A DNA stretch of 64,000 nt, from the NCBI GenBank assembly GCA_903813345.2, contig CAIIXF020000010.1:20285181-20349180 (forward strand), in the 5' to 3' direction. This DNA comes from Owenia fusiformis. Its lineage: Eukaryota > Annelida > Polychaeta > Sabellida > Oweniidae. The first letter of the stretch is position 1; the number at the start of each line of letters is the position of its first letter. The notes below the pieces were generated by a model. The model saw only the letters and a program-made list of their open reading frames with translations, did no database searches and had not been told where the DNA came from. Both the position numbers and the translations under genes were made by a program. Shown here piece by piece: positions 19,101-64,000 of this stretch.

Positions 19101-21765
19101 TAATCAATGTTTATTTCAATCATATAATATCCTTGAAAATTTGAGATTACTCTTTACTTTTGACTATTCACAAAATTCAAAATGTTTCGGATGACTGGTA
19201 GGAACTCATAACAGGACTACTTGGTGGTAGGCTTATTACTTAATATGTAAATCAATATATTGGTATAAAGGTGCTGTAAAATCGCCCATATTGGAAATGG
19301 CTTTTATTTATTTGAAATATGCATTGTTTTAATTTTTTGCAATAATGTGGTTGCATAACTTGTTTCACAATTTGCATTTTCCACCATATAATTTTATATT
19401 TTTTGCTGCATAATTTCAATCTCTAACCTGCATAATTCTAGGATATGTGAGAGTCCAAAGAATATGATTAGGAGAGATACATACGTTTAAGGTAATTGTC
19501 CATCAGTTTAAATACAGCTTGCCTATGATCCCTAGTCTGCTCGGAAACATTGTTCTCATTACCTAAATGAAATAAAGGTAATTTCATATACATTATGTTC
19601 ATCAAAATTCCTTATATTTAAGGCCAATAGCCAGGTGGATTTCAGGCTCTAGAGTCAATTTCATGGGTTAAGACTTTCTCTGATGATTCTATTTTCGAAT
19701 TATGCATGAAGGTCCATTCAAAGTCGCCTATTAAAAAATTGGTAGGGTAAACAATATGTCAAAGTTGTTTGATCTCATCCTAGAAGCAATATTTTGTCAC
19801 TTGTATCTTGTCTGAATATTATAACAATTCCTTACTTGATTGTTTTAGTGACTGAATAGCAGCAGAGCATGTTTTCATGAATGATTGGGCATCTTCATCT
19901 ATCTGGTCTCGTTCAGCATCAGTCATACCAGACTTGTCACTCTTTATATAACTGAAACAATCATTGTCACTCTTTATATAACTGAAATAATCATTGTCAC
20001 TCTTTATATAACTGAAATAATCATTGTCACTCTTTATATAACTGAAATAATCATTGTCACTCTTTATATAACTGAAATAATCATTGTCACTCTTTATATA
20101 ACTGAAATAATCATTGACACTCTTTATGTAACTGCAATAGTCAACTATAAGGTTTGAGTAACTGACTTTATTATTAAGAATTATTTTGAGAGATATGGCA
20201 CTTCATTTTATCAATCCTAAAAGGGTAAGTTATGGATTGCATTCATTAAACCATATATTCTTGTCAAGAATGCAAGAAATGTTGGTGATCTCCAAAGTAT
20301 TAGAGCAACCAGGTACTGCACCAACATGCAGAAAATTTGAGAATTACATGCAAAATGCAAACCTTTTGGAAACCTGTTTGCGCACTGTCATAATGCTGAT
20401 AGGTAGATTAGGATTTTGCACTAGCAAAAACTGGTTGAAATTTGGAAACTAAAAATCTGTCACTTCACAGTCACTTGACAGTGCAGTTTACAATAAAATT
20501 GAAAACAAAAGCTGTTTTCTTGTAACTAGGCTGTTTGAAATCATGAGTATGAAATACATGTGTTAAACTGCCCTACCTAGATGGGTTGATATAATCTTTT
20601 CTATGGGTCTGCAGAAAGTCTCTAAGTTGTGTTATGCTATTTATCTGAAAATCAAATTTAAATATGAATATTCTGAAAAATGTAAAAGCTTAACAATTAT
20701 CAGCTGAATAGGTTATCAAGTTTCATGACTTGGATGCCATGAGAGTTACACCAGTATACATGAATGTCACACCAAATTGCAAATGTGAGTTCCCAAGAAC
20801 CAAGATACATGTACATTTAGATGTGTAGCAGCCTTGGATAGCAAGTTGCTACAACAGCATAGCTAGTACAATGTAGCTACACATGAGTATGCCCTTTTAA
20901 ACAGCTCTGTCATAACATTAGGCTTTGGATTTTAAGTCTTGGGTTTGAATCTAGCTACTGATATTGTAGCTAGCTGAATAAGAAATTCAGCTACGAGATC
21001 ACAAATGTAATTTTTACCAAATAACTTATAACAACATTCTACTTTTAAAAAATGTTAATTATGGTGATGAAGTAGAGTACAACATGTACTACAAACCTGA
21101 GTGTGTTTATCTTCAGTTTATCACCATCAAATATCCCAAATATTGTGTTTTAATTTGCTTTGATTTGCATGCAACTTTTTGCATAAGATTTCCCATGATG
21201 CATTATCATCTCATGCAAATGTCACATGATCAATTATGATTGATATATTTTTTACATTGGATCCGTGAATATAATTATATGCATGTGTTTTTGATAAACA
21301 ATGTGGACCTTTTATCTCCGTTGTAAGCAGAGTAAAATCAGACTTCAGAGTGCGGATTTCAAATTTCTCAATTTCACATGTCAACCCCAGATCTCGGTGA
21401 TCATAATACAAAAATAATGCACCATTTTTGGAACTATATGTGAAATACTACTGTCTGAATTATAACGACACTGTAGATCATATACATGTACAAACGTGTA
21501 AGATGGCTAAGATACATGTATGAATGCATTTTTCATATGATACAAATCTATTGTACTCAGTTATTTTTGGTTTTATTAACATACATGAAAGGTTTTATAC
21601 TAAAATTACATGTATACTCACCACTTCCTTTGATTTCTTAGAAAATTCAGTTTTCACTTTTGCATGGGGAAAGATATGATTTTTATCAATTTCAAGACCC
21701 TGTGACTTCTGTCGAGTTTTCACTGCCTTGACAGTTGCTTTGAACAAATTAGTGATATCTGCCAT
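16146..21765 (-). CDS. STX18: Syntaxin 18 (ER Qa-SNARE), complete, ten coding exons
   Basis: Syntaxin 18 is the ER-resident Qa-SNARE for Golgi-to-ER retrograde fusion. Ten exons join in frame: 21622-21765, 20577-20644, 19836-19951, 19485-19562, 18853-18919, 18122-18219, 17483-17586, 17057-17115, 16750-16900, 16146-16241. Together they make 981 nt, 326 residues (human about 335). Seen: N-terminus [32 protein letters not shown] and ERDQID in the N-terminal helical domain, an acidic linker ([16 protein letters not shown]), then the SNARE motif with [15 protein letters not shown] and the zero-layer Gln of LEQEKDID. The tail anchor is [20 protein letters not shown], then WYNN and stop. The very short lumenal tail fits the family. 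The exon 5 donor is the downstream GTAAGT, chosen because it restores DRKRISRLEPE. The exon 3 acceptor lies in a seven-copy 30-bp repeat. Confidence 0.95.
16280..16420. mobile_element. Single CAGGGTG-type element end
   Basis: In the last STX18 intron the sequence TTACAGGGTGAGCCAAAAAA resembles the outer end of the TA-flanked elements seen elsewhere in the window. No matching inverted end was found, so it is a fragment or a chance match. Confidence 0.3.
16497..16631. repeat. Short copy of the ATGTCACCAC repeat family
   Basis: Starts ATGTCACCACTTGCC, contains GTTACAGA-GCC and a degenerate CGAACACCATCC-type tract, and ends with a diverged GTGGCGACGT hairpin after ACAATATGTCAAC. The order of parts matches the 3' portion of the element at 2625-3461, so it is a short member lacking the long internal repeat. 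It lies in the last STX18 intron. Confidence 0.5.
19936..20145 (-). repeat. Seven-copy 30-bp tandem repeat carrying the STX18 exon 3 acceptor
   Basis: Seven 30-bp units, five of them almost identical, start at 19936, 19966, 19996, 20026, 20056, 20086 and 20116. The unit at 20116 is the most diverged. On the gene strand each unit contains TTTCAG (TTGCAG in the diverged one) followed by the first bases of exon 3 (TTATATAAAGAGTGAC). The unit length is a multiple of three and, in the STX18 frame, reads [10 protein letters not shown] without stops. Use of an outer acceptor would therefore insert 10 to 60 residues in frame. Confidence 0.9.
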
Positions 21766-38615: not shown

Positions 38616-39038
38616 TACATAGAGACCTTTTGCAGAAAAGCACCCGGTCTAATAGTAAAAACGTTTGGATTTTAAATTGAAAATAGACATGACATGGAAT
38701 GACGACAGCAAAAATATTGTAAAATTGTGACAATGTTTTAATTTTAGAAACATTCTCAGACGGCTCTTTCCATTCTACTTACTTTATGGAAGAGCAAGTA
38801 TCTACTAGCATGCAACATCCGGCCTAGTACTTTTGAAAAGGATTACCAACTGATCAGCGGCCAATTCTTATAAACGGGGTTGGTCTTGAATTCATGTATT
38901 AATTAAGGAATAATCCCAAGATGAACAAGATGAAAAATATTAAAACTGCATAGATATTGAGATAAATACTTAACGATTACATTCTTCGTGCGCCTGCTTG
39001 TGATGAGTATAGCCGGATGTGTATACAACCCTTCATTA
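38616..39038. other. No feature seen
   Basis: A short gap between the palindromic element and the Helitron. No exon or repeat is recognised. Confidence 0.5.
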
Positions 39039-40100
39039 TCCCACCGAACGAAGTTCGTTGGGATATAGAGAAGCCGTGCGTTCGTCCAGTCGTCCTATCC
39101 CACCGAACGAAGTTCGTTGGGATATAGAGAACCCGTGCGTTCGTTCGGTCGTCCTATCCCACCGAACGAAATTCGTTGGGATATAGAGAAGCCGTGCGTT
39201 CGTTCGGTCGTCCGTCCGTTTGTGCGGATGATAACTCAAATACCGGTTGACAGATTTGGTTTAAACTTTATAGTCTTAAACCTTGAGTGTAGGACCTCAG
39301 TGCTCGAGAAGGAATTTTCAATATGGCCACTCGATTTAACATGGCCGCCATTTTTCTTAAAAAATTAATCTTTGATAACTCAAATACTATTTAACGTATT
39401 TGGTTCAAATTTTATATGCTGATGACAAAAGACAAAGGAGCTTTGCTGAAGAAGAGATTTTCAAGATTTCGAGCTCTGGTAAAGAAAGAATTTTTAAGAT
39501 GGTGGCTGAATTTCAAAAGGCCACTATTCTTCGTAACAGAACGTAAACTCAAATACCAGCTGATGGATTTGTTCTGTATGCTGATGCCTAGAGACATAGG
39601 AGCTCCACTCAAGATGACAATTTCAAGATGGCTACTAAAGAAAATGGTCGCGATTTTTCATAAAAAAAGTAATAGTAATCTTTGATAACTTAAAGACGAA
39701 TTCGGTTTAAATTTTAAATGCTGATTCTCGAGAAGAGATTTTCAAGATGGCAGCTATTTATCAAAATGACCGCAATTTGTCGTTAGAAATGTAACCTTTG
39801 ATAACCAAAATACCAGTTGATGGATTTGGTTCAAATTTTATATGCTGGTGTCTAGGGACAAAGAAGCTCTGTTCAAAAACAAATTTCTTAGATGGCACCT
39901 GAATATCAAAATGGTTGCCATTTTTCGTAAAAATCGTTGATAACTCAAATAGTAATTGACGGATTTGGTTTAAATTTTATATTCCGATACCCGAGGGACA
40001 AGGGAGCTCTGTTCAAGAAGAAATTTTCAAGATGGTCACTATTTATCAAAATTTTTTTGTTCGGTGGGATTTGATACTCCGTGGAGTTTCTGTTTTCTAG
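39039..40100 (+). mobile_element. Non-autonomous Helitron
   Basis: Begins TCCCACCGAACGAAG directly after a host A and ends CTAG directly before a host T. A terminal hairpin, ACTCCGTGGAGT, lies about 11 bases before CTAG. TC start, CTRR end, subterminal hairpin and A|T insertion are the Helitron hallmarks. The left part is three 59-bp tandem units (starts 39039, 39098, 39157). The rest is about six diverged copies of a roughly 140-160 bp unit containing GATAACTCAAATACC, TTTGGTTCAAATTTTATATG and TTTTCAAGATGG. No Rep or helicase is present. Short frames here are repeat shadows. Confidence 0.8.
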
Positions 40101-47319: not shown

Positions 47320-47345
47320 TTACAGTACAGATTGCACCACAATGT
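47235..47345 (-). repeat. 25-bp minisatellite covering the DMXL stop codon
   Basis: About four units of CACCACATGTTTACAGTAC plus GATTG-type bases. The 5'-most unit on the gene strand encodes the last DMXL residues, VVQSVL, and the stop at 47320-47322. The following units repeat the same stop in the 3' UTR. Confidence 0.75.
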
Positions 47346-50300
47346 CTCTATCGGGCAACTGACGAACTTTAAGTGAGCCATCTGCCCCACAAGAGTATAG
47401 GTGGCCCCTGGGACCAATCATAAGTTGTATACAGCCTGTATGGGCACCATGCATGTTGCGGAATATTGAAGATTTGGCATGTTCACCAGGAAGAGAGGCC
47501 ATCAACTGATGCACTGTTAGGCCCCATATCTGAAACAGGTATAAACAAAATAAGTTATCTGCTAAAAAGTTTTGAATACATAAAAGATTAAGGTTTCATA
47601 AATGAGAATTGATGATGTAAAAAGTGGGGAAAAAAGCTTTGTTATTTTGGGTTACTTTTTTCTCGCCTCACATATCCTGTCAGAAGATCCAGTGACGGAG
47701 AATACGGAAACAGTTAAGATTTTGTGTAGAGATGGTAATGGGATCTGATGCTAATGTTAATAGTTATGTGAGGAAAAACAATTTCATATTTTGAAGCACT
47801 GTCGTCTCACCTTAATATCTCCATCAGAAGATCCTGTTATAAAGAACTCTTCACTGGGATCCATGGCGAGACAACGAACAGAGGACTCGTGGGCTTGGAA
47901 TGTGTGGCGAATCTGGCGCTGACGAATGTCAAAGATACAGATTTCTCCCCGCTTACCTCCAGATATTATACACTGGTTCTGGGCTGCATAGAGTAAAGAG
48001 GGGGCGCCACTATCGTGACAAGCAAAGCCTGGAAATAGTTTTAGGATAATGTACGCATATTTGTTGAATGAAGAAATCATAAATAGAGTACATGTGTATG
48101 CCTAATCATTATATGAACATTTACTTTTCATTCAAATTACTACGAGCTATATATGCATACATGTAATAAATACATCAAGAAATAGCCAATAGAAAGAGTT
48201 TTGATTGAAGTACTAGTCTTATATGGAAAACATAAGAACTTACTATGAACAAGGGAATTTTTTGGTGACATCAGGGTATCCCATAGACAGACATTCTTAT
48301 TATCTGTAGAGGCCCCTGCAGTGGCTAACAAACTCGAAGACCCCACAAAAGTGAAATCATAAGTTGTCTTTGTGTGACACTTTAGTTTCATGAAAGGTTT
48401 GCTCATGTTAACACCTAGTCCTACTTGCCACAGGCACAAGGAGCCTTCACCTTCAGCAACTCCAAACTGAAAATATAGTTAACCATATAATGAGTGAAAC
48501 AACTGAAGATCCATGCTGACTGACGTGGTTATTCAAACATTCATGTCAGTGCCACTAGATAATTCCAACATTCTACCGAAGTCAGCAATATGAAACGAAT
48601 AGCATCATTGGCGAGACTTGATTCTAGTCTTTTCCCCAAATGGATCAAATTTTCTGTATGTTCAATTTTACACAAATCATCATATCATTATACTACACAA
48701 TGACAACAAAGGCTTGCATACCTTATTTCCCTGTGCATTGAACAGTATCTTGGTGACCTTGGCCTGTGTGCCTGGCTCCCTGGCTGTTGATATGCACTGG
48801 TCATGTCCCCATTCATACAGCTTCACACTGCCATCTGTGCCTCCTGTCAAGTCTATAAGCAAGAAATTAAATTTTTCATTTTGATTGTTTTATTGAAAAG
48901 TGTCTCATACAAGTTTTCATTATATTTTTCTCCCATCATTCAATGTCATTCATATTTTGTCAATATTTCGAAAGTTCAGACTTTATCCCTGGAAAATCCA
49001 GATTTCTATGGTAATTTGGCCAAATAATAAAAATGCACGATTTTGGAAAATATTGCTTCTAATATTTTACACTCTCCATTCTCCATCTATCTTTATTTCA
49101 TTTATTAACCTTTATAATTTGTGGGATAAATGTAATGTATATGTGTTAACTTATTTAAAGCAAATCTATGATACATCATATTTATTCAATTAAACTTGGC
49201 TCACAATATGGCAGGTGTGGATGGGATCCCATTCTGCGGATGTTGGGCAGGTTCCTCTTGGACATCTGGAAGGAAGTGAGAACACAAATATGAATAAAAG
49301 TAAAAATTGCAAATATCAAGAGCACAAAAATGAACATGCATATAAATGAATTTTAGAAACATTGACAAGGTACTTAATAATATAATCTGATTCAAAATGC
49401 AATGAAAATACAACAAAATACACCAAAATTATGACATATACATTATGTAATAATCACACAATAAGATTTGTATGCTTTTACAACTCTCATGCTAGCATGA
49501 TGCATTAAGAGTGTAATCCAGTAGCAGTTTTCAACCAGTGCAAGAAGCATCCCAAAATGGGAACCAAATGGTTCTTGGATTAAATCATGGGCTTAGTCAA
49601 CAGATTTATAAATTTATTTTACCATTCTACAGACAGCTTAAATTCAATATCATATCCAGTCTCCTGATCATTGTGTTACTTATATGATCAGTTTCTTTGG
49701 AAATTAGAAAATAGTTTTAACTTATACATTCACTCATTAATGAATACATGTATGCAACTATGTTACTCTAAAAAATAAACTGACATTGTTTACTTGAGTC
49801 TCTAGCCAATATTGTCTTATAAAGATATTCTGGATCCACAGCTTATACAAACATGGAATGAATACAGATTGATATATTTGAGGCACCAAAGGTGTTCCAC
49901 TTATACAGGTTTTACTATAATAGGTTCTACTGTTTCATACTCAAGTAATAAAAAACAAGCAATAAAATAGTAAATAAATTGAAGTCTTAACTTAAGATTT
50001 AATTGGTGTATTTTGTTTTAATTAGTGTAATGTTATGTAATTCAATGAAAAGTAGACCATGCTTTAAATGTTCAGTGCTGAAAAACATCAAATGGAGATA
50101 CAATGAACAAGCATGACTTTGATAGATGCGAGGTTTTCATTTCACACATTATATAAAGGGGTCCTTTAAATGAAAACGATGTAAATCAACTGAGTCTATA
50201 CAAACAGTCTATACTCTCTGTGGAGAGGACTATAAGAATAAAATAAAGAGCACTGAAAAACATTCACTGTACACAACATGGATAAGAAACAATTGACAAC

Positions 50301-53300
50301 AAAATTTAACTGACACAATAATGATGTAAATCTGAAATAAAAAGCTGCAATATGCAATTGATGTTTGTATACAATACAGAAGTGAATAAATACAGAAGTG
50401 AATACATAAATATACACAAAACAAATATTCAATAACAACAAAGACATGACAAGGGATCTACAATCTGCTATTGTGATGTCACATGCAATTCAGTGTCACA
50501 TGCACGCAAGTGACACTCACCCGACGCATTAACCGACGGCTTCGGTCTACCACATATGATGAGTAGTAAGCATTGGTAATACCAGGAAGGTTAAGTCCCT
50601 TCATCTGTTACCATGGTAACCGTATCCAAGCAGCACAAAGAAATATAGCAGGGTTACACAGATCAGCCATTATACCCGATACAATACATAAATTCAAAGC
50701 ATTTAGAAACACCACCATTCTAAACTATCTGTCATGTTGAGATGTTCTTGGACACAAAGATAGTAAAACAAGGGAGTAAGTACTGTATATGTAAGGGCCT
50801 TTGTTTAATCATGGGGAAATTACTTACAATTTACAAATTCTTAAAATCTTATTTCTATTTTAGCCCTGAATCCTAATTTTTTTGTTCGAACATTTTTTTC
50901 AATTATTGTTGAAAAATATGCCTAGTGAAATTAGTAAAGGCAAAGGTTATGAAGAAAATACATTGGTGGCAGTCTAAGTAAACTGCAATTTGCAAGAAGT
51001 ACAGTATGATGGGTCTTGCATGGAAATTGTATGAAAAAGCAGAACCATTCACATACTGAACACACCCACATGTGCGGATTCAGATACATACCAATCCCAG
51101 CTATAGATGGCAGTAGAATCAAAGCATGTGAGCAAGATACCCATTTTATCAATGAAAATTCCCTTTAACTTCACACACAGGGTAATTATACTAACTACAT
51201 GTATCAAAGACGTGAATCACCATGTCCCACATGAACCCGAATACCATATTATTAAGCATTAATAACTATTATACATGTAAGGTTATATCACTTACCACAC
51301 TTCCTCCTCTACCGGTCATACCACTGGAGTTGTACGTGGGGGCAGGGACTACCCCTGGGGCTGTGGGGGTATGTACAGATGAACCACTGCTGGTCTCCTG
51401 CTGTTCGCTTGGAGTCTGGATTACCAAGAAGTCATCAGGGTGTTGGGAGCTTGGGGCATTGCTGCAAAATATAGTTATAACTTTATTGACCCATCCAAAG
51501 GTGGATGGTTAAAGTTATTGACCTCTCCTTGACCAATAAGAGCTAGAGTTTCAACTGAGGACACTATATGTTTAAATCAGGCTTGTGCAGTTTAGTGTGT
51601 AAAGTAAAACTCTTGACATTATTGAAAGATGAAACACTTGTTTATCCAGTAATTCAATATAAATGCCATTCAATAAATTGTATAACAGACTTACTTCTTG
51701 ATTGTCTCTATGTCATATTCAGTGTCGTCTTCTAGCCAAGATGGTGGATTTAAGATTCCAGAAACTTCCATTTCAATTACTTCTTTGGGTACTGCTAGCG
51801 CAACACAGTTCAAGTTGGCCTATACATCAAATAATTTACATGTACATGTATATGTTATGTTATGTTATGTACATGTAATGTATAAAAATGTTTTCAAATC
51901 AAAAAGAATTTTATGGAGAAAATGTGAAATGGTATGTACCATTTGCACAATGATTTTCCATGATGGGGTAATATCCAGATAACTGATTTCATTTGTGTTA
52001 GTCATTTTTACACATTTCTTATGAAAAATTCTAATGAATGAGCCCTTAAGGAGATGTTAAGGCATTAAAGGATACTGTGCCGACCTTTTAAAAAGTATGT
52101 GTGCAAGCTTTGCCAAAAACACAGCACATCATTTGACTTAAGCCGATGGCAGGCAAGTCAGATAATCAACAAGAATTTTACGCACGATTTCTGCTTCTTG
52201 TAAATATTATTTATAAACAATGGACTGTACGGTGTCTTCATCACGATATTGTCATCTATACTCCATGTATTTTAAGAAGGAAAATAACATAATCGAACAA
52301 CTCAGTGATTCAGCTGCCATCTATTAGTGGAATCAATAGTGTAAAATCTAGCTAGCGTAAAGAGCCAAGGATGATGCAGAAAATGACTACGTAATGCTCT
52401 TATTACATGTTGCAAGCAAAGCACACATGCTTGTTCTGCTTACCCCTGAGTACTGACGAGACTCTTTATCAAACTGTAAAATGGAAGCACAATATCCGGA
52501 ATCAATAAATTCTGTTAGCTTACCTCAAACTTTTAGATCTTTAAACGTTACCTCTTTAAATAAAAAAAAAAGAATTGCAGGTAGGGAAGTGTGTAATGTG
52601 GACACATTTTTAAAAGTACTTGTAGCTGTAAGTGAATTAATTGACTACCTGATTTATAGCAAATGCAGTGATAATGTCTTGGTCTTTGTGTATGATCTTC
52701 ACTGGACTTGGGATACGCTGGACTCCTGTGTCAACAACATCACCTCCTGTGTCACCCTGGAAATGTATAAGACATTGACGTGAAATGAGAAACATAAATG
52801 AAGGTTTTAACATGAGGAAAATTCACTTTCTAGTTGCAATTACAAAAGTGCAACATGAAAAGTAATTTAAAGATGACATAAAAAGTAATTTAAAGGTGAC
52901 ATAAAAGTAATTTAAAGGTGACATAAAAATGAATTTATCTTTATTTGTATTTGAACGCTCACTTGCGGGCTTACTCATAACCCTTACTTTGCTAACTTGA
53001 GCGATGAGTATCATTTTATTAACATGTATATTCTACTAATAAAAACCTACCAATGGTTCAGCAACTTTTCTTTTCTTAAAAATGAACCTAATGAAGACAT
53101 CTTGTAATATTTCTTTCTTGACTAGATAGTGCCAGAGTCTTTTACATGGCAGTGAGGAATGATTATCACACCTGAAACACAACAATGATTTATAATTGTG
53201 CATGTAGCTTGATGAAAGATTTTATTTTTACTTTATCAAATACTTTTAAAACAGTGGTTAACAATTAACATTATTTTTCATGAAAATACCTGGAATTTTT

Positions 53301-56300
53301 ATATGAATTATGAGGAAGGAGATTGTCAGTGCAACATAAAAATGGTACAATTGGCACGACTTAAAAGATGTGCATTTTTGAATCTTACATAGCACAGCCA
53401 TGATACAAAAGGCAAGGCAAAATTAAATTGGTGAGGCATAATTAGATTGGTGAGGCAAAATTAGATTGGTGAGGCAAAATTTAAACAAGATAGGATATTA
53501 CACTTCTAAGGTACATAATTTCCTGTTTGAGTCACTGAAAAACTGAAATTAATTTGTCTGTAAAAATTTGGGAAGACACTTGCCTCGCCTGCCTCATAGA
53601 TATCTACACTCATGATCTTATAAAATACATAAAGATTGTGTACACTCACAGGAATGGAGTATTTATAGGCTCTAACATGGCCTTGTATTTCAGTATGGCA
53701 GGCCCTGTGTTGGTTGAGTCAGTATAGCAACCAGGGATGTAGTCATCAGGAGGGCCAGGGAACTGTTCTAGTTCTTCTAAACAGTTCATCTCCCAATGCC
53801 CAAGGGAGCTCACCACTGCTTGGAGTAATGGGGATGACACTGGGAGCTCTATAACAGAAATATATTTATATATTAAATATAAGCAATTGCTAAAATATAT
53901 TAAAGAATTCAGATATATGTACAAGTATTTGGACTGTAGACTGTGTTCAATTAATAAATACTCAATTGGCCTCAATTAAATATATTGTATCTCACCTGGG
54001 ATTTCAAGTCCAACTTGTGGCAAGAACGTCTTCATGTTGTTCAGGACATACTTCATGATTGCGTACCTCAACAGGCACCAGCTGTAGGATGTAGGGTCAG
54101 AATGTTGTTGCATTCCTTCATCATGCCTATAAAGTAAATGTGCAATATAAACATAATATCCGGACATACTTCATGATGGCGTACCTCAACAGGCACCAGC
54201 TGTAGGATATAGGGTCAGAATGTTGTTGCATTCCTTCATCATGCCTATAAAGTAAATGTGCAATATAAATATAATATTTGGACATACTTCATGATGGCGT
54301 ACCTCAACAAGCAACAGCTGTAGGATGTAGGGTCAGAATGTTGTTGCATTCCTTCATCATGCCTATAAAGTAAAAGTGCAAAATAAATATAATATCTGGA
54401 CATACTTCATGATGGCGTACCTCAACAGGCACCAGCTGTAGGATGTAGGATCAGAATGCTGTTGCATTACTTTGTCATGCCTACAAAAATTCACAAAACA
54501 GTTCATACATATGAGATTTTTTATAGCCACATAAAAACTGAAGGCTCATGGCCACAAGCCAGCTTTTGTAAAGTTGGGGTTTCGTTTTTGGAAATATTCC
54601 AGGGGGTTTAAAATTTGACAAATTTGGCCTGAAATCACTGGACAAGTTCGCTCAAATCATTTGTATCCCTTGGCTACAGGCCTGACTGTAACCACTAACC
54701 ATCATTATTGTTTAACAAGAATTATTTTTCTGCGATTTTACTACAATCACAAATTGCGTGAAATTAAATAACATAGGAAAAATATCAAGAGTACAAAAGA
54801 AGAATATGACTTACAGGTTCAGGCTGTTTTCATCATTGTAGTCATCTTCACTGTCCAAGGACACATCAGAGTCATAGTCTATACAGTCAATACCCTGGGC
54901 ATCTGGGGGAACGTATGGCTACAATGATAGAGGGGATGCATGTGTTTCAGTGTTCTCAAAAGCATGGGAGCAAAGGGTATTGCACACTGCTAGAAATCTA
55001 AAATGTCAATCTGTAGAAAATCTATTTTATTTGCAAATGGGTGATATATCAGGAATTTTCATTAAAAGAAAAAAAGGTAAGTAAATTAGAATTGACATTT
55101 AGCTTCCTGAAAAAATCCTGGGCCAATCACTGAGATCACATAAGTTTCATCGACACCAACGAGATATTAGAGTCAAACTAAATGTTCAAACAGTATAGGG
55201 TGTCAATAAAATTTCTTTACAAAAGTTAGAGACTGCATTGTGATTGTAAATAGACTTTATGGACACCCTGTACCAATGTGTTTCATTTAATTTCGTCATG
55301 AAATATGTGACCATGTTTTGCTTAGGGGGCACAAACTTGTACATAGACTTCTTCGACAATATCTAAGGAGACGTCAGAGTAAATAAGTAATCATTCAAAG
55401 AAATATCACTTTGTGTTTAACTCACCTTGGTCATGAAGTATGTGACCATGTTTTGCTTTGGGGGCACAAACTTGTCTTTGTATTGTTGTTTCCCTTCACT
55501 GCTAGTCTGACTGCTGCCTTGTTGACCCAGAACCTTAAGGTGGAACTTGATACGCTGTTTAGACAGATCATCTTGCCCTGGAGATTAAGCAAAGACTCAA
55601 CAAGATCCGTACAGGCTTGTATGGGGTCCGATGTAATTTGCCTGTGTACCTTATGCAAACCATATACCTTATTTTATTGGGGTTTTCAGCATACCTCGAT
55701 AGATCTGCTTCCATATAAATAGTTAACTCTATAGACTATTCAACATTCTAGCTACTAATCTGATAGACCTGATTAACTATGGATATAAAGACAATCCTAA
55801 GAACATACAATAGGCATGATATGGTATATGTACCATGGTACATCATATAATACTCAAATGCTTAACATACCTTTGACTGTCTGAGCTGATTCTGTAGACT
55901 TGACAAGTTTCTTGAGTCCACCACCAAATAATACATTCCACATTTTCTCAGAGAATACATGAGACACCAGCCTATGACATAATCACAATAGAGCACACAT
56001 TGATGAAATAGGACTACATGTATACTTAACAAGAATCCTAAATGTCTCAAACCAGAACCAGCAGATCCTGAAATAGTAGAAGTAAAGTGTCACGATTCAT
56101 GGCCTAAGCTGAAACAGAATGATTTCAGAATTGAATCATTTGGCATTCAATCTTTATTACCCAAATTAGGCAACAAGTCTTGAAGACTGCAATTAGCATT
56201 TAGGCAGCTGTGATTTTTGAACACTGTAAGGTGCCATCTCATATGATCTTACATATGTACATATTACCTCAGAGCAAGCAATGGAAATATGATGACCTAT

Positions 56301-59300
56301 AGTAAGGTACTAACCTGTATAGAGTATTTGCATCATAGGTGGACAACGCATGGATCAGTAGGGACATGTAGACGCCAATCAATGCCTCACATAACAGAAT
56401 GTTCATTTTAGGAGCATCGTCATCCTTCTCTCTTGCTAACAAACTGCGGAGACTAGCAACACCTGATAGGAAAAAATAGAAAAATAGAAAAGTATGAGGA
56501 TTAACCTTCTGTCTATATCTGTTGCCCCTTCTCCAGGGATCCAGTGGTGATAAATATTACAACTGAATTTGTTGGAAATATCATAACAGTTTTCCATAAT
56601 TGGGGAATGATTTCCATACTTTTTAAAACTAGGACCCCCTTGGTGTAGTAGTAGTGACACATAATAATCATAAAGATTTCAATATTAAGACTATTATTAT
56701 ATTGACTATGTACAGTAATTCCGTTCCGAAGCAAAATGTTCCAAACCAAACCGTTCCGATTTTTTGTTCCGTGACATCTCTATTGTACAGGCAATTCCAC
56801 CCACATACAGTCTATATATACCTGGCCACTTTGAAGGTTGAGAGTTAGGGGTGTCCTCACTGTTGCTTGACTGTCTCCGTCTCCTAACTGCACCTGATAC
56901 AAGGTAGTTATCCTTCACAACATCAACACTGAAATACACATAAACATATGAATAAGCTATAATGAATGACCAGTTTAGAAGTTTCGTTTAATGTGTTTTA
57001 TATTCCCTATTCTGATATATACCAAACTAATTGCTGATTCAAATGAGAGACTGACTATATTGTATACAAGTATTGGGCTTACAGATGTTACATGTATAGT
57101 TGCAAATTGCTAAACATTTATCAATACATTTTGGAAATTATGGAAATTAAAAAACGATGGATGTACATGGAAGTTCTCAGTTTCATACATGTTTCTTACT
57201 GAAAAATCAAATAACAGAGAAGAAAGACATGAAATTCAATGTTATCATCATGTACATATACCTTGAGAAGGCCTCCATTCCAATTTCCGTGCTATCAGAC
57301 ATTGCTACTGTGAAACTGTCACTGTCGCAAAGACACTGGTAGATACAGGCAGATAAGGCTGCACTCAGGTTGCGGAGTACAAACACCTGCAAAAGATATG
57401 TAGTTTATGTGAATGTCTTAATCTGATTTGTCAATGAGCAGTCAATAATATAGTTACTAGCCACACAACACTGACGAAAAATACAGTGGATTGTCCTTTA
57501 TTATTATTTACCATCTGAGTCTAAATACTCCCTTTTGATTGGATAAAAAGAGGTAGCTAATTTACTCAGTCTACCTGTAGAGAATCTACCAAATGTTTTT
57601 TAAAAGTCACAAATAAATTGTCAATGGACCTTTATCCATATACATAAGGTGAAGTGGATAAATTGTACCCCTCCACTGTTAAATTTGAAATCAATATTGA
57701 CCTTGACCTTCATGTATATCAGGATATAGTTGACCTATGCAATGTATTGCCAAGGGGGGTTCAGTTTTCAAAAACTTTCAGGGGGGTTCACATTTGACAA
57801 TATTGGCCCAAATTTGGCCAAAATCACTTGAGAAGTGCTCAAAATGGTGAAAAACTGCATGATTTTGAGAGAATTTTTGGCCAGGGGGGGGAGGGGGGGG
57901 GGGGGTTTGCCTGAATCCTGCGAACCCCCCTGGCTACAGGCCTGTCTTACCTTATTCTTTGTTGAATCTATATCAGGAGGTGAAGTAAACTCCACCACGG
58001 AATGCAGCAGGTCTTTTGTGAGACTGTCTATATGTCGTATAGGGTCAGCAATCACTGTTTTAGCACTAGCCACACATGCGGAAAGCAAGGGGAGGGTGGT
58101 GGGAAAAGGTAAAGGAGACAAGAGTTGCTGTTGAGTCTTCTCCTGCTGTAACTCCTGTAGGAGCAAGATTAGCTCCATTCTGACTGAAGCAAGTCCTCCT
58201 CCGCATGCACCTGTTGTAATGTATAGATTTTGTAATTCATATAATATGTTGTAATGTAAATATATGTTGTAATGTATATCTCGTATGTGCTGTAATATCA
58301 TAAATAGTAGCCGAGACAACACAAGTCCCAAGTCTGTATTTTTACTCTCATTTCTTCACTTTTAAGAGTTAAGTCATCATATTTTGCATGCATATTCCTT
58401 GAAGAAATCCTAACATAGAATTTTATTGGTTTCGATTATAATTTATTTGTTAAAAATAGAGAAACATTTGATTTGTATTGGTCCATAATCAGAATTATCC
58501 ATTTTGTGTAACAAATGCAACATTTTGACGTCATTAATAAAAATTGAAGTTATAAATGATAAATACAATATGGTGTCTCTAATTTTATTGACAATAACTA
58601 TCATCCTAGATATTTTTGCCAGTCACCAAATTAACGCACACATTACAAGCTTTAAGATGATACCAAATATGTCATCAATCATTTGATTAAAATGGTTACT
58701 GGAATAAGCCCAAAGGGTATGCCACTCCTCTACCCCATCCATTTTCAGGAAATTAAAACACGCAAAAAATCTCAAATAATGCAGGCATCTGTAGGGGTCC
58801 TTTTTGGCCCCGTTTTATTTCAAATATCATGTTCCTGCATACCATTTTTCTCGGATATGTCTCAATTACCCCAAAATAGTTACACTTCTGCTGAAAAAGG
58901 AAACATGTGGTCAATTTGGAATTATTACACCAAAAGTAGTGATTTTTTATATAAAGTTAAAATAATGCATTTGTCGCTGAAAATGGCAAATTTTGATTAT
59001 AGACCAATCAGAATCAAATGTTTCTCTATTTTCAACAAATAAGTTATAATCAAAACCAATAAAATCCTATGTTAGGATTTCTGCAAGGAATATGCATGCA
59101 AAATGTGCTGACTTAACTCTTAAAAGTGAAGAAATGAGAGTAAAAATACAGACTTGGGACTTGTGTTGTCTCGGCTACTATGTTATAATATATATATATT
59201 ATATATAATATATATAATATTTTGGACTATTTTATTATATATATATGGATTGTAATATATCATTGTAATGTGGTTATGTATAAATGCTAAAATATATCAA

Positions 59301-61228
59301 AAATGTATGTAAATAATGCATGGAATTCTATTTAAATAATCTGATTTCTTGAGTATCATTGTTCACAATGTTAATCTCTTTATGATAACTACATCAAATG
59401 ACTCACCCTGCAGGCTACAATAACTAAGGCAGTTACGCAGCAACTGCTGGTTATCATGTAGCCATTGTTTGCGTCGTGCCATGCGCTCTAATTTAGCCTC
59501 AAAGTCACTCTGGTCGGCCAGGATGATTTCATGAAGACTTGGTCTTGAGTTACGTTTATCATCATGCTCCGAGGATGTTCCTTTAGCTGGCTGACTCGCA
59601 TCTTCTTCTGTAATGAATTCATGGACCTTTTTGATTTTCAGATTTTGGTTTCAGATAATAGGATAAAATAAATTAAACAATATTGCTCATTAACTGAAAG
59701 GAAACATCAAAACTATCTACAAATAAAATCTCTCATTTCTTGTTGATGGAAACAAAATTGATTTAAAACAATATTATGTTTAATATTTAGAAAGATTCTC
59801 TCCAATGTAGGAACTATTAAAGAAGGAAGGAATGGAGTGGTTGTTGTGTAGGTCCTGAATTTGGGGGATGCCATTCAACAAGTTGTAAATCTATTAACAC
59901 CCAATTTGATATACAGTGTATTGTGGAAAATCTTTTAAAAATGGAATATTTTGACCAGTCTTAGACATCATCATAAGTTGGAAATAGTAACTTGAGAATT
60001 TTTAAGAGACAGTTTCAGACCTGTTAGTGTTCCTCCATAGTGACAAAGTTGCTTCAACATTTCAACTTCTCTCTCAAGCCACATGTAAAGCTGGAACCTG
60101 CAACAGAAGTAAATGGAAAATATACTGTATTTCTTGCTTATATTCTGTTGCTTATTAATTTAGCTCATTTTGATCACATGAATATGTAATCTCTACCAAA
60201 GATAAAATATTTAACATTTGCATATGTACAGGGTGTTTCACAATGATTATTCCCCCAAAGAATCACCAATCCTATTCACCTTTCCATAAAGTCAGCTCAT
60301 GAATATTATAATGAGCCGCTTAAAAATCGATCACGTCAATGAGGGAAACTAACACCCATTGGCTATTAAAAAGGAAAGTTGAGGCTAAATTTTCTATCCA
60401 AGAAGCTAGACTTTATTATTTTCCAATTGAAATATGTTCATAATACGTACACGATAGCGTTACCGTTTGGTATTTATTCGCCATGATCATCGATTTCAAT
60501 AACAATCAGTGATGTCAACATATCAACAATAAACATAATCTATATAATATACGCTATTTCTCTGAAATTTTCCTAGCGATAATTTTTCATGAAATAAATG
60601 GCATTATGGTGATGGTAATGAGGGGGGGGGACTCTACATAATTCAAGATTTTCTCAGGGAGATTCTGAACCCGTCCATATTTTATATATTAAAAATAATT
60701 AGTGCATTAGGCAAATATAATCCTTTTTATTGCTGCGTTAATTCAAAATATTCCTATGCTGGCTGTATTAATTCTTCAAATCTTTCAGTCATTGACGTCA
60801 TTGATTTAACTCATTTGCATATGGCCAATCAGCACGCTGGAAATTATCGATTTTCTTTACTTTATGGAAATGTGAATAGATGGCCTACTTCCATGTGTTA
60901 TATATCTTATGCATGTAATACAATGTCAGTCAAACATCCAAATTCAAAATAAGTACTTTCCAACATAAATCATTTTCAGAACTCATACCTCCAGAGGAAG
61001 AAACGTAATGGATGATGTCTGGAGCACTGCTTTCGAAGGATGACAATCAAGATGTTATATTCGTTCTTTGACATAATTAACATTGTACAAATACTTGACT
61101 CACCTCAGCTGTCCACCATCAACTTCAAACCCTGTGGCGAGGGTGCTTAATTCTTCCATCATAATCTTTAAACATGCAATATATTTCAGCTGTTGTCCCA
61201 TCAAGTCCATCTCACCTTTCTGGACACC
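47320..61228 (-). CDS. DMXL2: DMX-like protein (rabconnectin-3 alpha), C-terminal third, 22 exons
   Basis: A large WD-repeat scaffold of the rabconnectin-3/RAVE complex that promotes V-ATPase assembly; DMXL1 versus DMXL2 is not separable here. Exons from 5': 61104-61228, 60021-60097, 59407-59607, 57951-58210, 57262-57386, 56822-56928, 56315-56462, 55871-55971, 55426-55577, 54815-54918, 53996-54126, 53650-53848, 53051-53171, 52649-52756, 51695-51819, 51296-51461, 50521-50604, 49205-49265, 48722-48852, 48244-48466, 47811-48028, 47320-47529. All phases agree, giving about 1,058 residues (the whole protein is about 3,000). Family text seen: LKIMMEELSTLATGFEVDGG, GGGLASVRMELILLLQE, SYSWCLLRYAIMKYVLNN, KRLWHYLVKKEILQ, then C-terminal WD repeats (TDGSVKLYEWGHDQC, STDNKNVCLWDTLMSP, CHDSGAP, EHAKSSIFRN, LYSCGADGSLKVR). 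The 5' part lies beyond the window. Confidence 0.95.
50521..50604 (-). CDS. Probable optional DMXL cassette exon (28 codons)
   Basis: An 84-nt open segment with acceptor TAACAG and donor GTGAGT, phase 0 at both ends, encoding MKGLNLPGITNAYYSSYVV then a basic end (DRSRRLMRR). The neighbouring exons (51296-51461 and 49205-49265) join in frame with or without it. I do not recall this segment from vertebrate DMXL proteins, where the flanks appear joined directly, so it is probably alternatively spliced. Confidence 0.6.
52855..52930. repeat. Small tandem repeat in a DMXL intron
   Basis: Three copies of a roughly 23-bp unit (AAAGTAATTTAAAGGTGACAT). Intronic and non-coding. A similar three-copy unit, ATTAGATTGGTGAGGCAAA, lies at about 53420-53480. 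Confidence 0.7.
53996..54480 (-). repeat. Four-copy 118-bp duplication of a DMXL splice acceptor and exon
   Basis: Copies have acceptor-adjacent first bases at 54480, 54362, 54244 and 54126, an exact 118-bp period. The 54126 copy is the full exon (53996-54126). The other three consist of acceptor, 75 nt of exon (54406-54480, 54288-54362, 54170-54244) and GTATGT, a good donor. That donor is cryptic inside the full exon (AAGTATGTC). All three are open in the gene frame, and phase 2 on both sides makes each a symmetric 25-codon cassette (variants of HDEGMQQHSDPTSYSWCLL). Confidence 0.9.
54535..54690. repeat. GGCTACAGGCCTG-type dispersed repeat, copy 1
   Basis: Contains a G-run with TTTAAAATTTGACAAATTTG and ends TTGGCTACAGGCCTG. 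A second copy lies at about 57736-57946 and shares CAGGGGG, TTTGACAA, TTTGGCC and GGCTACAGGCCTG in the same order. A short non-coding family of unknown type in DMXL introns. Confidence 0.5.
55196..55270. mobile_element. 75-bp MITE in a DMXL intron
   Basis: Bounded by TA (55194-55195 and 55271-55272). The left end TAGGGTGTCAATAAA matches the complement of the right end TTTATGGACACCCTG over about 27 bp with mismatches. A minimal member of the CAGGGTG-ended group. Confidence 0.65.
55297..55348 (-). pseudogene. Partial duplicate of a DMXL exon
   Basis: About 50 bp nearly identical to the 3' end of the exon at 55426-55577 (both encode KFVPPKQNMVTYFMTK). It lies about 130 bp downstream on the gene strand. 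The GTGAG donor of the true exon is lost and no acceptor is present, so it should be silent. Confidence 0.75.
56716..56782. mobile_element. Miniature hAT relic in a DMXL intron
   Basis: 67 bp flanked by (A/T)TGTACAG, 7 of 8 bases identical, ending GTGACATCTCTATT. Shares AAAATGTTCC, CCGTTCCGA and GTGACATCTCT with the complement of the MITE at 23898-24270, so it belongs to the same family. Confidence 0.6.
57736..57946. repeat. GGCTACAGGCCTG-type repeat, copy 2, with long G-runs
   Basis: Long G-runs at about 57885-57905, and CTGGCTACAGGCCTG placed directly against a DMXL donor (exon end 57951). On the gene strand the intron therefore opens with CAGGCCTGTAGCC and a C-rich tract. Frames across it are shadows. 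Confidence 0.55.
58307..59178. mobile_element. 872-bp TIR element in a DMXL intron
   Basis: Inverted arms of about 235 bp (58307-58545 and about 58940-59178) start GTAGCCGAGACAAC. The outer 130 bp are highly alike, the inner part more diverged. TA flanks both sides (58305-58306, 59179-59180). The centre has a chance frame (58683-59042) without a transposase signature. Non-autonomous. Confidence 0.75.
60229..60900. mobile_element. TIR element with CAGGGTGTTTCA end
   Basis: The left end, CAGGGTGTTTCACAATG, follows TA. About 50 bp in, CTATTCACCTTTCCATAAAG has its diverged complement near 60860-60885. The right terminus is decayed and its limit approximate. A similar left end without a partner is at 12070. 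It lies in the DMXL intron between exons 61104-61228 and 60021-60097. Confidence 0.5.
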
Positions 61229-64000
61229 CTGTATAAAATAATAAAAAGCAATTAAATTATGTCAACAAGCTCTAAAGCAAGTGTAAAGATTTAAGAAATA
61301 TCCCGTTTTTTTAGAAAGATGACCATGAGTTTCTAGTGAATAAACCCCAGGAAAAGTGTTGTCTAAAAGCAGGATATAAAAGTCATATTTCTCTTGCATC
61401 ATCATTCAGTTTCTGATAACAAGAATTTACAACATTTGAAGAGGGTGAATAATATTAGATAGTGAATCACTTAGTACTATTTACCCACTATTTCATATAG
61501 AATGTATATGAAAGTTTATCACATGGTAAGGAGTTTCTAAGCATTTTGATTGGTCAATTGTGATGCTGCATATTCCATATCACATGGCAAGTGTCTCATT
61601 TTCATGTGATACGGTGGACTGTATCAATACGGAGTCAATAGCAATAATACTGCCCACACTCACAACTGACCAAATCAAAATGCTTAAAAACTCCTTGACA
61701 TGTGATAAAATCGTCATCATTGTATCAGTTGTACAAAGGGTATAAATGATTTCAATTAGATTTCGTTAAAGCATGCATTTTGGTAAATGGTAGCTGATTT
61801 ATATTTAGGGGAAATATTATTTAGATTTCAAAATCAGTACAGTAAACCTGTATATCTAGACACCTTGCTTCTCTGAACACCTCTCATTCTAAAAACATAT
61901 TCTTTGTATGTTTTTAAAAAATCTTTCACCTGCTAATCTAATCTGAACACTTTTGGCCAGTCAAAAAAGTGTTCCGATAAGACAGGTTTTACTGAATTAC
62001 GTTCAGGCTCTAGCACACTTAATTTCCTTAATGAAAGATTGCTTGTTTCTTTGTCAACATCAGTTCATAGTATAATCAATAGAAATCTACATAAATGTCT
62101 CGCTAATGGACCTATCAAAAACAACTTAATTGCACTATTAATGCTCTTTGAAAGAAAATAACCCTATTAAGTATTTCATAATCTCTAAGATTCAAACCTG
62201 AATATTTATATGTTTATCAATTCAATATCATGCTTTGAAAAAACATACCCATTTAAAGATTTCTAAATACAAAGAATATGATGAGATTCTTGGAACATCA
62301 CAAAAATGATTCCTTTGTTATTCCGAAGCTTCAATACACAGTGCTCCAATTAAAAATATAAATTGCTGATTTGTATATGAGCTTTACATGCAATTTCCAA
62401 ATAAATTGAAATAACATAGATTTCCGTGCAATCTGTCATGTAGATTTGTGTTATCGCTGATGTTATCCATGTAGGTCACAATGACTTTGATTTCCTCAAT
62501 AAACAGAAATTACTGTAGGACAATAATTATTTTACTACCTTTTGCGATTTTATTTCTTGATGATCATTTGATTTTAAGGTTAGATGGCAAAAACTAAAAA
62601 ATTGATGCCCCCCTTTTCAATCCAACTGAATTTTGACATTTCTGTATCTTTAATATTCAATTAGTTCTTCTATATTGGATCTTAACTTTTTCAAGAGCAT
62701 GAAGGTGTTAAATTGTTTTGAGAAATTGTCATGCTGTTTGAAAAGATTGCAACATTTTACTCTCTCTATCCATTTAACTTCCTTCATTCCATAGAGAAGC
62801 TGGCAGTAAACAAAGTTTGTTAGTAAATAGAATGACCTTGGAAAAGTGTTATTGCAGACTGCCATGAATGAGTAAGTTATTGACATCTTAGGAGAGTTTA
62901 TTAGAAGTCTTGAAGGCTTGCACAGATAATATCCTACTTCACAAGCACAAACAGAAATACCTCTGAAAGGAGACTAAATTTGTGTTTTTTTTAAATAGAA
63001 ACACAGTTCTGAAAAATATTTGGAAATCATATGGGACTAATATTATAAACAATAAGATGAGGGTTCTTTGAACAAGAGCAAGTATCCATATATTAAATCT
63101 GAGTGCTGTAAAAAGCAATGGTTGAAATAGACAATGGAGGACAGTGACATTCATGTTCCTACATGTTGACGAGCAAAGTGAATCAATCTCGATAGGCATA
63201 TGCTCACAGAGGCATCTGAATATACCGTCATCAGCAATAAGAAATTCCGTTAACAATTAATTGAAGGGTAAAAACTAAAAAGAAATTCAGATACATGTAG
63301 GAGACCCAGCTGGACATTCAAGCAAAAGTCAGTACGAGACAGCTGCACTAATTGGCCAGTAATACTACACTCTAAGAAAGATATCAATCATTAGTGTACC
63401 ATTCTGTAGTGCCCGTGTTTAGACAATAAAACGTTTAAAGCCATGGTGCTGACATCTTTAGCCATAAATGTGAACAATGGTGTAAATCTCAGAACCAATG
63501 AAAATGACTATACACCCAAAAAATCTAAACAATAAGAATGTCTGACTTACTCGGCAATATCTGAGAGGTACGTAAGGATATCATCACTTGCACTCAACAC
63601 AAAGATACCCTTTTTCAAGACAGCCATAATCATGATGAGATGTGCAAAAATAAAAACTAAATACTGTGAATCATATTTTGTAGCAGCCATCATTTTGGTA
63701 TTCATGATGAATGAAACATTAATTGGATACATTTATTTTCTTCATAAAGTGGAAGGTCCATTTAGTGCAAAACTGATAATATATTGTACTGGAATGCTTA
63801 TGATGTGGGCTCTTCAACTGCGTTTTAGTTTGTTTGACCCAGCTTCACACCTGCGCCTATTACCGTGGCTAGGAAAGATGGCACTGTTGGATATACCTGC
63901 AAGTTCTATCTGGCTGATGAAATATAATTGTGATAATTTCATCCCCTATATAGTGTTATTTATATCAAATTTGATCGCATTACTGTTTCTTTCATTTATG
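61229..64000. other. DMXL intron (at least 2.7 kb), no exon recognised
   Basis: The preceding DMXL exon was not found. The frame at 63547-63732 (minus) has a possible donor GTAAGT after LTYLSDIA but no convincing acceptor or DMXL similarity that I can recall, so it is not annotated as an exon. Confidence 0.4.

What the first reader, a model, noticed from the sequence alone, without database searches (positions are those of the whole stretch)
53996..54480. A DMXL exon is tandemly multiplied into three extra, splice-competent, in-frame cassettes
Four copies at an exact 118-bp period. The unit carries a 3' splice site, 75 nt of the exon and an internal GTATGT, which in the full exon is silent coding sequence (AAGTATGTC) but in the duplicates can act as a 5' splice site. 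Each extra copy is open, 75 nt long and phase-symmetric (2/2), so any number could be included, each adding 25 residues to a highly conserved scaffold. The copies differ by a few changes, including one Trp-to-Cys and one Thr-to-Ile. This looks like exon birth by unmasking a cryptic donor.
Basis: partly seen in the sequence, partly recalled or inferred. Interest (0 to 1): 0.82.

Follow-up and report, generated by a model that had tools for sequence, protein, structure and literature searches.

The report
Splice-site minisatellite in a DMXL gene
The start of one exon, with its splice site, is repeated in tandem inside an animal gene; it looks like a "mirage" minisatellite of a kind described in amphioxus, similar arrays sit at other exon edges of this genome, and whether any extra copy reaches the protein is unknown.

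Summary
The array is real: four copies at exactly 118 bp (54044-54487, minus strand), each with intron tail, acceptor and 83 nt of one exon of a DMXL/Rav1-type gene; only the last copy continues into the full exon. It matches one place in the 498-Mb assembly. The reading as freely stackable new exons is only partly supported. Joining neighbouring copies needs 58- or 43-nt introns, while the shortest of 128 other filtered predicted introns is 126 nt; so stacking is unlikely, and at most copy 1 or copy 2 could be added singly. Open frames say little in so young an array. Arrays straddling one exon edge recur in this genome (8 of 32 sampled arrays in other genes, as random placement predicts). 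The best reading is a mirage minisatellite, as described in amphioxus genes, where splicing is reported undisturbed. DMXL is the only one of ten inspected arrays whose every copy has a cryptic partner site above the median of real sites, so inclusion of one copy remains open. RNA data are needed.

The parts
54044..54487 (-). tandem array, 118-bp unit x 3.8, straddling the 3' splice site of one exon
   Evidence: one match in the assembly
54398..54480 (-). copy 1: 83 nt of exon sequence; most diverged, five private changes in positions 7-31
54421..54480 (-). copy 1 likelier cassette, 60 nt, donor GAG|gtacgc at 54420 (75-nt alternative ends at 54406)
54280..54362 (-). copy 2: 83 nt of exon sequence; Trp-to-Cys; likelier cassette 54362-54303
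54162..54244 (-). copy 3: 83 nt of exon sequence; Thr-to-Ile; likelier cassette 54244-54185; its only downstream partner in the array is 58 (or 43) nt away
53996..54126 (-). copy 4 continuous with the full 131-nt exon (donor CAG|gtgaga at 53995, 86th percentile)
54363..54397 (-). 35-nt intron-derived linker carrying the acceptor of copy 2; like ones follow copies 2 (54245-54279) and 3 (54127-54161)
54815..54918 (-). upstream exon, weak donor CCT|gtaagt (7th percentile), encodes an acidic stretch
53650..53848 (-). downstream exon
47320..64000 (-). 3' part of a DMXL/Rav1-type gene (own gene model, partly provisional; continues beyond the window, with Rav1p_C hits 7.5-12 kb past the window end)

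Best explanation
A 118-bp minisatellite was seeded by a tandem duplication running from 35 nt before the acceptor to 83 nt into one DMXL exon, and was then expanded and partly homogenised by unequal exchange (inferred; copy 1's 5' edge escaped, as expected for an array edge). It is of the kind called 'mirage' in amphioxus. Only the last copy is continuous with the rest of the exon and its strong donor, so exon definition is expected to favour 54815-to-54126 joining, and the upstream copies are mostly removed as intron (inferred, not shown). Because every copy has a fair cryptic donor, occasional inclusion of copy 1 or copy 2 alone (+60 nt, +20 residues) is possible; stacking is disfavoured by the very short inter-copy introns.
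For: Array and unit anatomy. The same kind of array at other exon edges of this genome: 8 of 32 arrays in 41 CCT and myosin stretches straddle one edge of 156 predicted exons (random placement mean 7.75), while whole-exon coverage is lower than random (2 cases, both predicted exons that are array copies in L019, against 7.86; P 0.0037); with 122 exons (88 supported by Pfam hits, 34 of the DMXL model) 7 straddle against 6.67 expected and 0 are wholly covered against 5.85, P 0.0006. One-edge duplication thus looks neutral, also in chaperonin genes where an added segment should be costly (inference). Amphioxus mirages are reported not to disturb regular splicing (globin and Adh3: PMC3087553 section 16; Adh and TnC: PMC3902484 passage); in an earthworm metallothionein gene, duplicated fourth exons are reported absent from the transcript (PMC12783039 passage). 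Inter-copy introns of 58 or 43 nt against a minimum of 126 in 128. The real exon donor is at the 86th percentile against the 56th and 28th for the cryptic ones.
Against: The copies' sites are good: acceptors at the 24th, 62nd and 41st percentile of 140, donors at the 56th of 138; at the level of copies 2 and 3 only 3 such site pairs, 0 of them phase-symmetric, were found in 137 kb of intron (copy 1's acceptor is below that threshold). My gene finder, which does not penalise short introns, includes all three cassettes. Silent changes are slightly in excess in copies 1-3 (4 of 8 against 18% expected, P 0.04 without correction for transitions). No transcript data were available, and the exons and introns counted are my own predictions.
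Confidence: 0.66

Rival explanations
1. Exonised mirage: copy 1 or copy 2, singly, is a genuine alternative cassette exon (60 nt by gtacgc, or 75 nt by gtatgt) adding 20 or 25 residues between an acidic stretch and the following conserved-looking segment; the short inter-copy introns keep two copies from being used together.
For: Both sites of real-exon strength in all three extra copies, phase 2/2; of ten straddling arrays inspected, only DMXL has a cryptic partner site above the median of real sites in every copy; permitted introns of 176 or 294 nt; slight silent excess.
Against: No transcripts; the same donors are presumably ignored in the full exon (inference); copies 1 and 2 carry non-conservative changes (Glu-to-Lys, Gly-to-Val, Trp-to-Cys); mirages elsewhere are reported to be ignored.
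Confidence: 0.24
2. One reading: several cassettes stacked in one transcript in any number.
For: Each copy is open, phase-symmetric and has both sites.
Against: Needs 58- or 43-nt introns; the shortest of 128 other filtered predicted introns is 126 nt.
Confidence: 0.04
3. Assembly artefact: copy number inflated or collapsed.
For: Tandem arrays are error-prone; no reads were available.
Against: Copies differ by 2-7 of 83 exonic positions and linkers by 3-4 of 35; the host contig is 37.5 Mb long; arrays of the kind occur at several loci.
Confidence: 0.05

Closest known systems
'Mirage' minisatellites of amphioxus (globins BflGb6 and BflGb9, Adh3, TnC; similar repeats in PGBD5)
   Same: Minisatellite-like tandem units spanning one intron/exon boundary, on either side of an exon; units of 10-160 bp; many copies carry splice signals; array edges escape homogenisation (PMC3087553 section 16; PMC3902484 one passage).
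   Different: The host genome does not look like amphioxus (see full report; not proved); every DMXL copy has a fair cryptic donor in a compatible phase; splicing here is untested.
Tandem exon duplication / mutually exclusive exons
   Same: Tandem homologous exon sequence within one intron.
   Different: The copies lack the 3' part of the exon, so they could only be added, not substituted; no whole exon is duplicated.
Intron gain by tandem genomic duplication of an AG/GT proto-splice site
   Same: Tandem duplication inside a gene that exposes cryptic splice sites (PMC2891723 passages).
   Different: Here the unit already contains a genuine acceptor and lies at an existing exon edge; no sign that the reading frame was split by a new intron.
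Internal tandem repeats at exon-intron boundaries of human duplicated genes
   Same: Minisatellites at boundaries can change splicing (PMC2812944 passages).
   Different: Those average about 30-bp units, lie in segmental duplications, and were judged from transcripts.

Membership tests
Mirage minisatellite | Head-to-tail minisatellite-like array | tested here: met
   118 bp x 3.8, 94% matches
Mirage minisatellite | Unit spans one exon/intron boundary | tested here: met
   35 nt intron tail plus 83 nt exon
Mirage minisatellite | Array-edge copy excluded from homogenisation | tested here: inconclusive
   Copy 1 carries five private changes, all in positions 7-31; only four copies
Mirage minisatellite | Regular splicing undisturbed | not testable with these tools
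   No transcript data
Mirage minisatellite | Copy number differs between haplotypes | not testable with these tools
   One match only in the assembly
Mutually exclusive exon cluster | Each copy can replace the other in the message | tested here: not met
   Copies 1-3 lack exon positions 84-131
Alternative cassette exon | Both splice sites at real-exon strength and frame kept | tested here: met
   strength judged against predicted sites
Alternative cassette exon | Inclusion in transcripts | not testable with these tools
   No transcript data
Stackable tandem cassettes | Inter-copy introns within the genome's intron-size range | tested here: not met
   58 or 43 nt against a minimum of 126 in 128 filtered predicted introns
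DMXL/Rav1 gene | Rav1p_C domain and C-terminal WD40 repeats in one gene | tested here: met
   PF12234: 4 matches at E up to 1, all at this locus, 3 over the cut-off; WD40 PF00400 E 7.7e-21 on the last exons. That both belong to one gene rests on my model. The exon at issue has no Pfam hit and no significant match in solved structures; the name DMXL is from recall of the family

The most novel reading that the evidence does not exclude
Mirage formation is a genome-wide process outside cephalochordates, duplicating one edge of several per cent of exons, and the DMXL array is exonisation caught in progress, in which one copy at a time is included because the inter-copy introns are too short for two.
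Probability: 0.22. Interest if true: 0.62.

Novelty: new member of a known kind. Interest (0 to 1): 0.42.

Why it matters
Arrays that duplicate one splice site test how the spliceosome picks one of several near-identical acceptors. A genome in which such arrays sit at several per cent of the sampled exons supplies natural replicates, and DMXL, with a cryptic donor in every copy, is the one of those inspected most likely to show whether mirages can seed new exons, as was proposed for amphioxus globins. If the copies are ignored, that shows how robust exon definition is; if used, that shows exon birth from a minisatellite.

Tried and rejected
Paralogue or dispersed repeat as source of the copies: rejected, one match for the DNA and five matches, all in this locus, for the 109-residue protein; both searches score only the best candidates. 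Homologue in solved structures: none significant (best E 0.45). Mutually exclusive exons through competing RNA structures: an inverted-repeat scan gave 24 pairs; the 13 of 18-24 nt are 70-78% complementary, 9 of them between array copies; one pairs the exon's donor region with the upstream intron. No chance control was run and this was not pursued. Homology between the upstream intron and the linker: score reached by 668 of 1000 shuffles, so none shown. Introns dropped by the filter (a flanking exon under 60 nt or coding score under 3) include an 85-nt one in DMXL (beside a 50-nt exon 7 that looks spurious), the two other 58-nt inter-copy introns, and 81-, 74- and 32-nt ones that lie in or beside arrays. 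My first straddling count (9 events, 37 arrays, 184 exons) removed exons lying inside arrays by construction and could not speak on whole-exon coverage; searches replaced it. One search used all 60 hits and 50 of the 92, chosen by eye as lying in held stretches, and includes the DMXL array that drew attention; one search leaves DMXL out. In one search two arrays lie inside predicted exons (0.94 expected), both doubtful open frames. The L060 array is among the ten inspected but its exon falls outside the counts. Species: one search found no COX1; one search found three Eryth_link_C hits over the cut-off (annelid family by recall); (mollusc haemocyanin by recall) is void because its control rang nowhere.

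Full report
What is there. On the minus strand, four copies of a 118-bp unit fill 54044-54487. Each unit is 35 nt of intron tail ending in the acceptor plus the first 83 nt of an exon (copy 1's upstream sequence is not like the linker); the last copy runs on into the full 131-nt exon 54126-53996. The window lies at C10:20285181-20349180 of a 498-Mb assembly in 525 contigs, and the array matches that one place. The protein of this exon and the next matches only this locus, 5 of 5 matches.

The gene. Four Rav1p_C matches lie 7.5-12 kb beyond the window end on the same strand, 3 of them over the cut-off, and there is no other match at E up to 1. WD40 repeats lie in the last exons. This fits a single DMXL/Rav1-type gene; the name DMXL for the exon at issue rests on recall, since it has no Pfam hit and no significant solved relative. 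My own gene finder gives 38 exons from 79174 to 47320 (coordinates extended past the window). Some of them, such as exons 7, 8 and 16, are doubtful.

Splice sites. Position weights were trained on 138 predicted donors and 140 predicted acceptors outside arrays. The extra copies' acceptors rank at the 24th (copy 1), 62nd (copy 2) and 41st (copy 3) percentile; copy 4's is at the 41st. Both keep phase 2/2. The true exon donor is at the 86th percentile, and the upstream exon's donor is weak (7th). In 137 kb of intronic sequence only 3 site pairs reached the level of copies 2 and 3, none phase-symmetric, although the gene finder may have absorbed some as exons.

Intron size. Joining neighbouring copies needs a 58-nt (60-nt cassette) or 43-nt (75-nt cassette) intron; skipping one copy needs 176 or 161 nt. 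Of 129 introns between predicted exons passing my filter, one is such a 58-nt inter-copy intron; the other 128 have a minimum of 126 nt; the median of the 129 is 359. The finder allowed introns down to 30 nt without penalty, so it was not biased against short ones; the short ones it proposed and the filter dropped are listed under Tried and rejected. Copy 3 therefore has no suitable downstream partner in the array, and the plausible messages are: no copy, copy 1 alone, or copy 2 alone.

Age and selection. Exonic differences between copies number 2-7 of 83, and linker differences 3-4 of 35. Copy 1 holds five private changes, all in positions 7-31, which fits an array edge missed by homogenisation. 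Eight changes in copies 1-3 are four silent and four replacing; 18% silent is expected by codon structure (P 0.04, no correction for transitions), which is weak and could reflect change in the real exon. Only 15 of 243 single changes create a stop, so open frames say little. If copy 1's acceptor were used without an internal donor, translation would end at the TAG of the next acceptor.

Not alone. In 41 stretches around CCT chaperonin and myosin exons, other arrays straddle an exon edge: 83 bp x 9 at an acceptor in L019, 96 bp x 4.2 at an acceptor and 105 bp x 2.4 at a donor in L024, 154 bp x 2 at a donor in L014, 61 bp x 4.5 at an acceptor in L053, 41 bp x 4 at a donor in L060, and others. 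Leaving DMXL out, 8 of 32 arrays straddle one edge of 156 predicted exons, against 7.75 by random placement; whole-exon coverage is 2 (both array copies in L019) against 7.86, P 0.0037; 2 arrays lie inside predicted exons against 0.94. With 122 exons (88 Pfam-supported, 34 DMXL), 7 straddle against 6.67, none is wholly covered against 5.85 (P 0.0006) and none holds an array against 0.87. One-edge arrays are thus neither avoided nor favoured in this sample, while whole-exon arrays are lacking. Exon definition offers a reason: only the copy continuous with the rest of the exon has both true splice sites (inference). Of the ten straddling arrays inspected, DMXL alone has a cryptic partner site above the median of real sites in every copy. 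L042 comes nearest, with acceptors of 3.7 and 2.9 bits before its two visible extra copies (25th percentile of real acceptors 3.74); L024 has a 4.6-bit donor in one of three extra copies; L025 has donors of 2.3 and 1.7 bits within 7 nt of its acceptor; the rest have none above zero or weak ones.

What is known. [quoted passage not shown] PMC3902484 (one passage) adds TnC and similar repeats in PGBD5. An earthworm metallothionein gene has duplicated fourth exons that are reported absent from its transcript (PMC12783039 passages). Five searches for boundary minisatellites, partial exon duplications or mirages listed 0, 3, 4, 2 and 12 papers; of these I opened five for passages and saw no mirage reported in an annelid. 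The rest I saw only as listings, and the library lacks most subscription journals. Tandem exon duplications and mutually exclusive exons (PMC9013439 abstract and sections 5-7; PMC6071210 abstract) differ, because here the copies cannot replace the exon.

Host. Hits of three gene families fall on contigs C1 and C3-C12, with four on C222 and none elsewhere, which suggests about a dozen large contigs (inference). GC is 34%, and three Eryth_link_C hits lie on C6 (an annelid family by recall). This points to an annelid rather than amphioxus, perhaps Owenia fusiformis (505.8 Mb and 12 chromosome-scale scaffolds in PMC9977687 passages). The sizes are not equal and the identity is not shown.

Verdict. 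The array is most likely a mirage minisatellite whose extra copies are mostly spliced out, with a real chance that copy 1 or 2 is occasionally included. The stacked-cassette reading is unlikely.

Noticed in passing
window 19934-20143, minus strand: A second mirage-like array in the window: 30 bp x 7 (97% matches), each of seven units with an acceptor-like CAG and about 18 nt like the start of the exon that follows (donor-like GTAAGG at 19835). As 30 is a multiple of 3 and the stretch is open, choice among the acceptors would add 10 residues a step in frame. The gene looks like a syntaxin-18 type by recall; Pfam gave no hit.
   Followed up: partly
L019 (C11:35576738 region): A CCT-subunit exon whose acceptor and first 41 nt occur nine times, the real exon included, at 83-89 bp spacing.
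   Followed up: partly
L024 (C11:134865 region): Two mirage-like arrays in one CCT gene, one at an acceptor (96 bp x 4.2) and one at a donor (105 bp x 2.4, cut by the locus end).
   Followed up: partly
G000:C9:37986009-37994334: Twelve hits to the same myosin-head segment (about profile 18-84) in one region, looking like a large set of alternative full-length exons of a myosin heavy chain gene.
   Followed up: no
G000:C10:20353621-20354613, minus strand (beyond the window end): A 331-residue open frame with weak 7tm_1 similarity (23.4 bits, below the cut-off of 30.5, tested on a 129-residue piece with one typing slip) inside a large predicted DMXL intron on the same strand: a possible nested receptor gene.
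   Followed up: no
window 39037-39213 and 53415-53481: Further short tandem arrays (59 bp x 3 and 19 bp x 3.5), the second in the intron after the downstream DMXL exon.
   Followed up: no
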